A DNA stretch of 51,391 bases from an alpha proteobacterium AAP38 (lineage in GTDB: Bacteria > Pseudomonadota > Alphaproteobacteria > Azospirillales > Azospirillaceae): assembly GCA_001296005.1 (NCBI GenBank), contig LJHR01000020.1, positions 1-51,391 on the forward strand, read 5' to 3'. Position numbers and translations under genes: made by a program. The notes beneath the pieces were generated by a model. The model saw only the letters and a program-made list of their open reading frames with translations, ran no database searches and was not told the DNA's origin. This document shows, piece after piece, positions 33,473-35,529 of the stretch (the first letter of the stretch is position 1; each line of letters begins with the position of its first letter).

Positions 33473-34302
33473 ATATGGACTGGATCACCGCCCTGGCCGA
33501 TTGTCAGCAGGAGGGCCGGCCCAGCGTGCTGGTCACGGTAACGGAGGTTGCGGGTTCCGCCCCCCGCACCGCCGGCACCAAGATGCTGGTCACCGCCGAC
33601 GCGCTGCACGGCACAATCGGCGGCGGCGCACTGGAGTTTACGGCCATTGAGACGGCCCGCGCCCTACTGGACAGGTATGTAACGGAATTACGCACACAAT
33701 CGTATCCCCTGGGGCCTGCGCTCGGCCAATGTTGCGGGGGGCGCGTCACCCTGCTGTTCGAACCGCTACTGCCCCCGCACCTGCGCATCGCCCTGTTCGG
33801 TGCCGGGCATGTGGCCAAGGCGCTGGTCGCCATCCTGGGCACACTGCCGGCCCGCGTCACCTGGATCGACAATCGCCCCGACCTGTTCCCCGACGTAACG
33901 CCCGCCAATGTCACGGCCCAGATGTTGGAGGAACCGGAAGCGGCGCTGACCCAGGGGTACAGCCACATCCTGATCATGACCCATGATCATGCGCTGGATT
34001 ACCGCCTTGTTAAATCAGCTCTATGCCTGCCTGGTGAACCCTTCGTGGGGGTTATCGGGTCGGATACGAAACGCGCGCGATTCGCCTCCCGCCTGCGGGC
34101 CGACGGGCTGGACCCCGACCGCCTCACCTGCCCCATCGGGGTCGCGGGCCTCACCGGCAAGCATCCAGGCGAAATCGCGGTGGCCGTGGCCGCACAATTG
34201 CTCAGCCTGCCCACCCCCGCCGCCATCCCGGCACCAAGTGATTTTGTTAGCGATAACAATTGCCTGGGCTGCGCCACGCCCTGCGGCGATGCCTTGCCAT
34301 GA
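33469..34302 (+). CDS. xdhC: Xanthine dehydrogenase accessory protein
   Basis: A 277-residue XdhC/CoxI-family chaperone that binds molybdenum cofactor and aids its sulfuration and insertion into XdhB. N-terminal T-E-V-A-G-S-A-P-R and I-G-G-G-A-L-E are family marks; the Rossmann-like part has L-F-G-A-G-H-V-A-K-A-L and V-I-G-S-D-T-K-R; a C-terminal C-L-G-C-A-T-P-C cluster is present. ATGA overlap with xdhB. The C-terminal coding sequence ends at the border of an A/T-rich gap. Confidence 0.95.
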   Translation: MNMDWITALADCQQEGRPSVLVTVTEVAGSAPRTAGTKMLVTADALHGTIGGGALEFTAIETARALLDRYVTELRTQSYPLGPALGQCCGGRVTLLFEPLLPPHLRIALFGAGHVAKALVAILGTLPARVTWIDNRPDLFPDVTPANVTAQMLEEPEAALTQGYSHILIMTHDHALDYRLVKSALCLPGEPFVGVIGSDTKRARFASRLRADGLDPDRLTCPIGVAGLTGKHPGEIAVAVAAQLLSLPTPAAIPAPSDFVSDNNCLGCATPCGDALP

Positions 34303-34400
34303 GAATTTGTGAATTAATAAAATGATTTTCATTTGTTTACGCATAGCTAAAAGCCTGTGCGTAGTGAAATTACCGACATATGCTTGATCTTATAAACGAA

Positions 34401-34496
34401 CCGCCGGCCCACGGGACTGGCGGCACTGTCGGGGGAAGCGAGCGAACAAGGCAACCATGACGGCATGTCCTGCCGTCCGGCTTTGTGAGGATCGCG
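34401..34496 (+). ncRNA. Structured 5' leader 1 (cis-regulatory RNA candidate)
   Basis: Elements in order: an upstream hairpin CCGCC/GGCGG (34401-34423); GCGA (34438-34441) that can pair with TCGC (34492-34495), one base before the ATG; ACAAGGC (34446-34452) pairing with GCTTTGT (34480-34486, one G-U); an inner hairpin GACGGCA/TGCCGTC (34459-34465 and 34471-34477) with a five-base loop. The ribosome-binding sequence GTGAGG sits in the internal loop between the two lower stems. The same plan recurs at 34991-35086 with a different inner hairpin. Function unknown; translational control is inferred from the masked start region. Confidence 0.6.
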
Positions 34497-34883
34497 ATGA
34501 AGAACCTGTTTTCCGCCTTGATCCTTTCCACCCTTGCCCTGGCCATCACCGGCCCTGCCCTTGCCGATATCACGGGCCTGAACGCCGCCTGTGGCGGCTT
34601 GCCCACCGCCCCCTCCGTGACTCACGGCGACAGCGCCGATGAAACGGCCATGCGCGCCTATGGCGCTGGCATGCGTGACTATACGGCCCGCCTGATGACC
34701 TATCTCACCTGCCTGGACAATCACCCGGCCAGCAGCGCCGACATGGCGTCGGCCAGCTACCGGCGCGAGGTGATCAGCCATCGTCAGCAGGTGGTGGATC
34801 AGTTGGAAAAAACCGTCACCCGCTTCAATGCCGAACTGAAGACTTTCAAGTCGCGGCAGGCCCAGGTGGCTGCCATTCCGTGA
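34497..34883 (+). CDS. Small secreted protein, paralogue 1
   Basis: A 128-residue protein. The signal peptide (residues 1-23) ends A-L-A|D. The mature part is helical with two Cys, one near 32 and one in Y-L-T-C-L-D-N, spaced as in the paralogue 200 bases downstream, and ends with a charged helix F-N-A-E-L-K-T-F-K-S-R-Q. I do not know a named family; similar short proteins with C-L-D and N-A-E-L-R-x-F-K occur in alphaproteobacteria. The ATG at 34497 is preferred over a GTG four codons earlier because it matches the paralogue and the leader ends against it. Confidence 0.8.
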   Translation: MKNLFSALILSTLALAITGPALADITGLNAACGGLPTAPSVTHGDSADETAMRAYGAGMRDYTARLMTYLTCLDNHPASSADMASASYRREVISHRQQVVDQLEKTVTRFNAELKTFKSRQAQVAAIP

Positions 34884-34990
34884 ACCCATGCAGCCTACGC
34901 ATGACAGATTCCTGTGTCAGCGGTGTCATTAACGATCTTTCCCTCTTTCGCTGCATCGCAACCGCTTTATACTGCACCGCACAAGAACAC

Positions 34991-35086
34991 GGTTCCGGCC
35001 CGATCCGGACCATTGAAGGGAGCGAACGTACAAGGCCCGAAACGTCGGTGGCATCCCGCCCCGGTTCCAGCTTTGTGAGTATCGCT
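34991..35086 (+). ncRNA. Structured 5' leader 2 (cis-regulatory RNA candidate)
   Basis: Same architecture as leader 1: upstream hairpin GGT-CCGG/CCGGACC (34991-35011, one bulge); AGCGA (35021-35025) pairing with TCGCT (35082-35086) next to the ATG; ACAAGGC (35030-35036) with GCTTTGT (35070-35076); inner hairpin GGTGG/CCGCC (35047-35051 and 35056-35060, one G-U). Spacings between the lower stems are identical to leader 1 (four bases on the 5' side, five on the 3' side), while the inner and upstream hairpins differ in sequence yet still pair. Confidence 0.6.
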
Positions 35087-35470
35087 ATGAAAAAGCTCTA
35101 TTCCGCTCTGATCCTCTCCGCCCTGGCCCTGCTGGCTGCTGGTCAGTCCCAGGCCGCCCACCCCGCGCTGAAGCGCCTCTGCGGTGAGGCTCCGGCTGCC
35201 CCGCAGTTGATCGAAGGCACGACCGCCACCCGCGATAGCATGGTGCAGGTCGCCGGCTCCGTCCGCGGCTTCGCGGACCAGTCGCTGAACTACCTGTCCT
35301 GCCTGGACAGCCAGCCGGCCTCCACCTCCTATATGGCGCAGCCGTCCTTCCGGGCCCAGCTGTCCGCCTATCGCGATCAGGTTGCCGACCGCCTGGAATT
35401 GACCGTGAACGCCTACAACGCCGAACTGCGCGACTTCAAGGCGCAGCAGGCCCAGGTGGCACAGAAGTAA
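35087..35470 (+). CDS. Small secreted protein, paralogue 2
   Basis: A 127-residue protein: signal peptide to about residue 23 (S-Q-A-A|H), then a helical domain with Cys near 32 and in Y-L-S-C-L-D-S, ending Y-N-A-E-L-R-D-F-K-A-Q-Q. It is clearly related to paralogue 1 over its full length, including N-terminus, C-L-D motif and terminal helix. The frame reaches 34880, but the extension covers leader 2 and has no signal peptide. A strong terminator follows. Role unknown; the paired Cys and export suggest a periplasmic or surface structural or binding role. Confidence 0.82.
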   Translation: MKKLYSALILSALALLAAGQSQAAHPALKRLCGEAPAAPQLIEGTTATRDSMVQVAGSVRGFADQSLNYLSCLDSQPASTSYMAQPSFRAQLSAYRDQVADRLELTVNAYNAELRDFKAQQAQVAQK

Positions 35471-35497: not shown

Positions 35498-35529
35498 AAA
35501 AGGGCGGGTGGCAACACCCGCCCTTTTTT
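35498..35529 (+). terminator. Rho-independent terminator after paralogue 2
   Basis: AAAGGGCGGGTG and CACCCGCCCTTT form a long stem around GCAA, followed by TTTTG. It ends the two-gene secreted-protein transcript and also faces the convergent esterase gene. Confidence 0.92.

What the first reader, a model, noticed from the sequence alone, without database searches (positions are those of the whole stretch)
34401..35086. Two copies of an unrecognised structured RNA leader that encloses the start codon region
Seen: before both small secreted-protein genes there is GCGA, four bases, ACAAGGC, a variable hairpin, GCTTTGT, five bases (GAGGA or GAGTA), TCGC, one base, ATG. GCGA pairs with TCGC and ACAAGGC with GCTTTGT, so the ribosome-binding site lies in an internal loop and the start codon touches a stem. 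The apical hairpins differ in sequence (GACGGCA/TGCCGTC against GGTGG/CCGCC) but both pair, and both leaders also have a dissimilar hairpin upstream. Geometry is kept while stem sequence changes, which favours selection on structure. I do not recognise it as a known riboswitch or thermosensor class. Inference: translational control, by ligand, protein or temperature. Shared ancestry by duplication explains the conserved strands, so covariation rests on the hairpins only.
Basis: partly seen in the sequence, partly recalled or inferred. Interest (0 to 1): 0.85.

Follow-up and report, generated by a model that had tools for sequence, protein, structure and literature searches.

The report
Conserved hairpin leader of secreted-protein genes
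Two sister genes for small secreted proteins in a Niveispirillum bacterium start with a short RNA leader that is kept more strictly than the proteins themselves and can fold into a hairpin next to the start codon; it probably sets how ribosomes load, but how it does so has not been shown.

Summary
All 15 close orthologues, in 9 of 11 Niveispirillum genomes, carry it. A covariance model finds only these 15 strongly (E below 1e-14) among 82 family genomes; among 385 class genomes it adds one weak match inside a reading frame. In 9 of 9 informative comparisons the leader is more conserved than its gene, fourfold sites and upstream DNA. No Rfam family matches.

Covariation gives little support: the basal arms hardly vary, no basal pair changes on both sides, substitution tests are not significant; RNAalifold finds the arms with one double change. 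Folds beat shuffles in B (z -2.2 to -3.0), not clearly in A. Melting at 20-50 C is not predicted and CsrA is absent. Gene B has ribosomal-protein-like codon usage although its local Shine-Dalgarno is weakish and buried. I therefore favour a structured ribosome-loading leader (split or standby site) over a default-off switch. The mechanism is inferred.

The parts
34391..34396 (+). Putative -10 element (TATAAA) of gene A
   Evidence: By eye, kept in 5 of 6 A orthologues. The consensus scan did not report it; its only promoter-like site is 34294-34323, which would give a longer leader. No transcript data
34401..34423 (+). 5' hairpin of leader A (CCGCCGG/CTGGCGG)
   Evidence: 95.2% of 42 cells paired in 6 A leaders, one pair with a double change, but 167 of 500 shuffles reach this
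34431..34436 (+). GGGGGA, Shine-Dalgarno-like, 5' of the stem
   Evidence: Kept in 6 of 6 A leaders; duplex with anti-SD -8.4 to -12.4 kcal/mol
34438..34495 (+). Main hairpin of leader A: GCGA/TCGC, ACAAGGC/GCTTTGT, apical GACGGCA/TGCCGTC; encloses local SD GAGGA 34487-34491
34497..34883 (+). Gene A, 128-aa protein with signal-peptide-like start and two cysteines; median codon usage
34968..34973 (+). Putative -10 element (TATACT) of gene B
   Evidence: By eye, TATACT or TATAGT in 9 of 9 B orthologues; not reported by the scan; no transcript data
34991..35011 (+). 5' hairpin of leader B (irregular)
   Evidence: z near zero or positive in 6 of 8 B leaders folded
35016..35020 (+). AAGGG, Shine-Dalgarno-like, directly 5' of the stem
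   Evidence: GGGAGCGA kept in 9 of 9 B leaders; -7.0 to -7.9 kcal/mol with anti-SD
35021..35086 (+). Main hairpin of leader B: AGCGA/UCGCU abutting AUG, AC/GU, UACAAGGC/GCUUUGUG, apical hairpin; buries GUGAG
35087..35470 (+). Gene B, 127-aa protein with signal-peptide-like start, predicted helical, ribosomal-protein-like codon usage
35498..35527 (+). Intrinsic-terminator-like hairpin after gene B

Best explanation
It is a genus-specific, cis-acting translation-initiation leader of a small secreted-protein gene and its probable tandem duplicate. A hairpin of about 60 nt folds out the stretch between a G-rich, Shine-Dalgarno-like site (AAGGG or GGGGGA) and the start codon: the G-rich site touches the 5' foot of the stem and AUG the 3' foot, while the local Shine-Dalgarno (GAGGA in A, only GUGAG in B) is buried. 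The 30S subunit is proposed to load on the upstream site (split or standby ribosome-binding site) and to reach AUG across the stem or after opening part of it. Shown: the sequences, their conservation, their restriction to this gene family in the genomes searched, and the predicted fold. Inferred: that the fold forms in cells, that the upstream site binds ribosomes, and that the arrangement supports rather than blocks translation.
For: All 15 close orthologues have the leader, and no other place in 82 family genomes matches below E 0.03. Leader identity (82-97%) exceeds coding (68-87%), fourfold-site (52-75%) and upstream identity (48-84%) in 9 of 9 informative comparisons; 4 comparisons with near-identical relatives say nothing. 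B folds beat shuffles: z -2.17 to -2.95 in 8 of 8 B leaders folded, 6 distinct cores. RNAalifold finds the basal arms unaided. The G-rich site is kept in 15 of 15; in the core folds it and AUG lie 0-1 nt from the stem in 13 of 14 leaders folded (3 nt in A_G070; the 15th, B_G072, has the B_G000 core). Gene B is codon-adapted: 2 of 38 mechanically chosen window ORFs score higher; 0.61-0.83 in 9 genomes, and 0.74-0.84 for 7 sister-genus homologues. Yet its local SD is only -3.7 kcal/mol and closed (P unpaired 0.15; 2 of 23 other window starts are that closed). Precedents: T4 genes 38 and 25 (PMC3014915, passages) and thrS (PMC3936740, passages).
Against: Little covariation supports the stems. In longer folds the G-rich site is mostly paired, with differing partners (P unpaired 0.01-0.44), and AUG itself is mostly paired in A_G073 and B_G069. 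A site of -7 kcal/mol or better at -80 to -42 also occurs in 10 of 23 control genes, and 7 of 23 have a local SD weaker than -3.7, so neither number is unusual by itself. Closure of the local SD is not beyond shuffled leaders in A (55 of 100 at least as closed) and only marginal in B (6-7 of 100, three leaders). Copy A has a usable SD at normal spacing, median codon usage, and folds with z -2.22 to +0.02. Codon bias says that a protein is abundant at some time, not that its leader is always on.
Confidence: 0.36

Rival explanations
1. Repressive switch: the hairpin hides the ribosome-binding site, and an unknown ligand, RNA-binding protein or small RNA opens or locks it.
For: Local SD mostly paired in the predicted ensemble of the 9 leaders tested (P unpaired 0.15-0.44 at 37 C); the whole leader, loops included, is strongly conserved, as expected for specific recognition; sister-genus homologues also have a predicted stem over their SD.
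Against: B is predicted to be highly expressed; I found no conserved second conformation, judged by eye only; the element precedes one gene family only; no Rfam match; CsrA absent from 11 of 11 genus genomes. The sister-genus stem is no more stable than shuffles in 6 of 7 (z -1.31 to +0.92; one -3.02) and has no double change.
Confidence: 0.31
2. The sequence is conserved for reasons other than the start-site stem, such as mRNA stability, an sRNA target or a DNA-level site, and the pairing is incidental.
For: Little covariation and no sparing of pairs; A folds hardly better than shuffles.
Against: Arm spacing varies from 27 to 34 nt, which does not suit a DNA operator with fixed half-sites; conservation runs up to ATG; B folds better than shuffles in 8 of 8.
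Confidence: 0.24
3. RNA thermometer that melts on warming.
For: Hairpin around the ribosome-binding site.
Against: Predicted SD opening changes by 0.05 or less from 20 to 50 C in 8 of 9 leaders and by 0.08 in one; no Rfam family matched, which by recall includes ROSE and FourU.
Confidence: 0.04
4. The end of the 3' arm is coding: translation starts at the in-frame GTG 12 nt before ATG (V/M-R/S-I-A-M-K).
For: GTG-AGG/AGT-ATC-GCN-ATG is in frame in 15 of 15, and both variable bases are third codon positions.
Against: No Shine-Dalgarno before the GTG by eye; A has GAGG at good spacing for ATG; further 5' the leaders differ by indels of 1-4 nt, so the rest is not coding.
Confidence: 0.04

Closest known systems
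Split translation-initiation regions of phage T4 genes 38 and 25 (PMC3014915, passages seen)
   Same: An mRNA hairpin between SD and AUG shortens the effective spacing; phylogenetically restricted
   Different: There 22 and 27 nt lie between SD and AUG; here about 60 nt, with a second, local SD inside the stem; no experiment here
E. coli thrS split ribosome-binding site and the standby-site model (PMC3936740, passages seen)
   Same: Single-stranded upstream ribosome contact, then a hairpin, then the start codon; accommodated hairpins allow high translation
   Different: thrS is autoregulated by its own product (recalled); no such link is known here
tisB standby leader (PMC7708055, abstract seen)
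   Same: Sequestered ribosome-binding site with an upstream loading region and a 5' structure
   Different: Toxin gene of a toxin-antitoxin pair, pseudoknot needed; here a codon-adapted secreted protein; an antisense RNA was not searched for
Rfam cis-regulatory leaders
   Same: Hairpin around the start site
   Different: No match at gathering score in the window or 6 related loci; at E up to 5 only two families below their cut-offs (Ms_AS-1, 21.5 of 37 bits, over 34485-34605; Six3os1_3), judged chance

Membership tests
Split ribosome-binding site (T4 gene 25/38 type) | Predicted hairpin between an SD-like site and AUG that brings them close | tested here: met
   Core folds of 14 of 15 leaders; 0-1 nt on both sides in 13 of 14, 3 nt in A_G070. 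With 78 nt upstream A_G073 folds its outer helix differently
Split ribosome-binding site (T4 gene 25/38 type) | Upstream SD is accessible and binds 30S | tested here: inconclusive
   Unpaired in the core folds of 13 of 14 (A_G068 pairs part of it), mostly paired in longer folds; binding cannot be tested here
Split ribosome-binding site (T4 gene 25/38 type) | Weakening the hairpin lowers translation | not testable with these tools
   Needs reporter mutants
RNA thermometer | SD freed on warming | tested here: not met
   Prediction only: 9 of 15 leaders, 20-50 C
CsrA/RsmA-controlled leader | CsrA present in the organism | tested here: not met
   0 of 11 genus genomes; control rings in 3 of 14 named genomes
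Known Rfam riboswitch or leader | Covariance-model match | tested here: not met
Structured RNA by covariation | Compensatory double changes beyond controls | tested here: not met
   0 in 11 basal pairs over 13 distinct rows; 1 of 15 RNAalifold pairs, no control run on it; 1 in the A 5' hairpin, reached by 167 of 500 shuffles
Riboswitch-like broad distribution | Element in front of several gene families or taxa | tested here: not met
   Strong matches only before this gene family, in one genus (82 genomes; 385 genomes; both with strict filters that can lose weak matches)

The most novel reading that the evidence does not exclude
A chromosomal split ribosome-binding site: a hairpin of about 60 nt abutting AUG docks a remote Shine-Dalgarno onto the start codon and replaces the local one, driving high expression of a secreted protein, with the leader under stronger selection than the protein.
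Probability: 0.2. Interest if true: 0.6.

Novelty: new member of a known kind. Interest (0 to 1): 0.4.

Why it matters
A 5' leader that is more conserved than the protein behind it marks a site where initiation itself is under selection. If the split-site reading holds, it would be a natural bacterial case in which a stable hairpin next to AUG helps translation, and the two diverged paralogues (weak against good local SD, high against median codon bias) give a built-in comparison. If the switch reading holds, it is a cis-regulatory RNA limited to one genus that Rfam 15 does not hold.

Tried and rejected
Rfam at gathering score and at E up to 5: nothing relevant. Pfam and NCBIfam: no family for the two proteins above its cut-off; NCBIfam none at all, Pfam four chance-level rows. 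AlphaFold model (mean pLDDT 75.8, pTM 0.65, two long helices) and Foldseek against PDB: 0 of 162 matches at E 0.001 or below, so the protein gives no hint of a ligand. CsrA: absent. Thermometer: flat. Coding leader: indels reject it except for the last four codons. DNA operator: variable arm spacing. Weak model matches: 16 rows at E 0.04-0.77, of which I printed 8; by eye none has the motif before a signal-peptide gene; the other 8 were not looked at. The one class-level match (G309, E 3.2e-4) lies in an open reading frame. My first helix string for the A 5' hairpin was one column off, corrected. A first codon-usage run picked antisense ORFs and was discarded. A first control scan crashed and had minus-strand starts 3 nt off (its leader rows stand), redone. 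The order-level search returned the same 82 genomes as the family search. Papers: 8 of 8 listed for Niveispirillum with transcriptome, none on these genes by title, none opened; the mixed search listed 8 of 15,238, none of the 8 naming Niveispirillum; some searches were listings used to choose three papers, of which I saw passages (two) and an abstract (one). An alternative pairing GGAGC/GCUUU, noticed by eye as a possible second state, fails in A_G070 and was dropped without a calculation.

Full report
What is there. The window lies in a genome of the genus Niveispirillum (kin named; own genome 62 contigs). Downstream of genes that I read as xdhABC (label recalled, no model run) stand two paralogous genes, A (34497-34883) and B (35087-35470), for proteins of 128 and 127 residues with signal-peptide-like starts, 44% identical, without a Pfam or NCBIfam family. 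The exact pattern occurs twice in the genome and its reversed control not at all.

Distribution. A protein search of 82 Azospirillaceae genomes finds 15 close orthologues in 9 of 11 Niveispirillum genomes: 9 B-type and 6 A-type. All 15 have the leader. A covariance model from 14 of the 15 (B_G072, whose core equals B_G000, was left out) returns these 15 at E below 1e-14 and otherwise 16 rows at E 0.04 or higher. Among 385 genomes drawn from the class, of which three are Niveispirillum with matches, the only other match at E 0.001 or below is one at 3.2e-4 inside an open reading frame. Both scans used strict filters. In two of three genomes with one copy (N. irakense, SYP-B3756) the gene stands after xdhC; in the third (RU38E) no xdh gene lies within 3 kb. 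In three genomes A follows xdhC and B lies elsewhere, beside genes read as esterase or amylase; in the window's genome and two kin both lie together. So A and B are probably a tandem duplication.

Selection. In the nine comparisons with enough divergence the leader core is 82-97% identical, against 68-87% for the whole coding sequence, 52-75% at fourfold sites and 48-84% in up to 100 bp upstream. Four comparisons with near-identical relatives are uninformative. This is the strongest result: the leader is conserved beyond its gene.

Structure. Basal arms: 97.9% of 143 cells pair, against 31-49% when the partner is slid by 1-3 columns, but the arms hardly vary: five compatible one-sided types, no double change, and the shuffles score the same. 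RNAalifold finds these arms unaided, plus one pair changed on both sides (UA in 8, CG in 5) in the poorly aligned apical part. Substitutions do not spare reference pairs more than random placement does (p 0.17-1.0 in 8 comparisons); this test has little power. Energies: B z -2.17 to -2.95 in 8 of 8 leaders folded (6 distinct cores); A +0.02 to -2.22 in 6. The apical hairpin exceeds shuffles clearly in 5 of 6 A leaders and weakly in B. The A 5' hairpin has one double change, reached by 167 of 500 shuffles. I conclude that the fold is likely in B, plausible in A, and not proven by covariation.

Relatives outside the genus. Seven genomes of a sister genus have homologues of 26-31% identity. Their leaders carry an invariant GGGGAGGG and a predicted stem over the SD, with no double change, and that stem is no more stable than shuffles in 6 of 7. 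Local similarity to the B leader (16 of 20 bases in the one alignment printed) has p 0.006-0.024 for two of three sister leaders tested and is not significant for the third nor for any A comparison. Six more distant homologues printed have leaders without the motif by eye.

Mechanism. Predicted opening of the SD is flat from 20 to 50 C in 9 leaders. CsrA is absent in 11 of 11 genomes. With codon weights from 20 ORFs of a ribosomal-protein cluster, B scores 0.773 (2 of 38 window ORFs higher; the cluster's own ORFs 0.55-0.83) and A 0.638 (19 of 38 at or above). With 15 ORFs chosen by eye as ribosomal, B scores 0.61-0.83 in 9 genomes, A 0.37-0.64 in 6, and the sister-genus genes 0.74-0.84 in 7, all with weights from this one genome. 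B's local SD is -3.7 kcal/mol (7 of 23 control starts are weaker) and closed (P unpaired 0.15; 2 of 23 controls are that closed), whereas AAGGG directly 5' of the stem scores -7.0 to -7.9. A gene with such codon usage and a buried, weakish SD beside AUG fits a split or standby site better than a default-off switch. T4 genes 38 and 25 are precedents, where a hairpin cuts the spacing from 22 to 5 and from 27 to 11 nt (PMC3014915, passages), as is thrS (PMC3936740, passages). Against this, 10 of 23 control genes also have an SD-like site of that strength upstream, longer folds pair the G-rich site, and closure of the local SD is no greater than in shuffled leaders for A (55 of 100) and marginal for B (6-7 of 100). 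The mechanism is therefore an inference at about 0.36, and regulated repression stays a serious rival.

Verdict. A real, strongly conserved, genus-specific leader, new as an individual element but of a known kind.

Noticed in passing
34485-34496 and 35075-35086: In-frame GTG-AGG/AGT-ATC-GCN before ATG in 15 of 15 orthologues; both variable bases are third codon positions, so a four-residue N-terminal extension is not fully excluded.
   Followed up: partly
34497-34883 versus 35087-35470: The paralogues differ in codon adaptation (A near the window median or below, B mostly like ribosomal proteins) across the genus.
   Followed up: partly
L013-L019 (sister genus), about 105-45 nt before ATG: A hairpin GCGAAA...TTTCGC and a strong Shine-Dalgarno-like GGGGAGGG without a start codon nearby precede the homologous genes in 7 of 7 genomes; another possible standby leader.
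   Followed up: partly
G000:C14:119457, C23:1999, C61:155018: More distant paralogues of this secreted family elsewhere in the genome; the covariance model gives no match at these places.
   Followed up: no
34294-34323: A promoter-like site (10 of 12, one found against 0.3 expected) at the end of the gene before A; if used, leader A would start some 70 nt further upstream than I assume.
   Followed up: no
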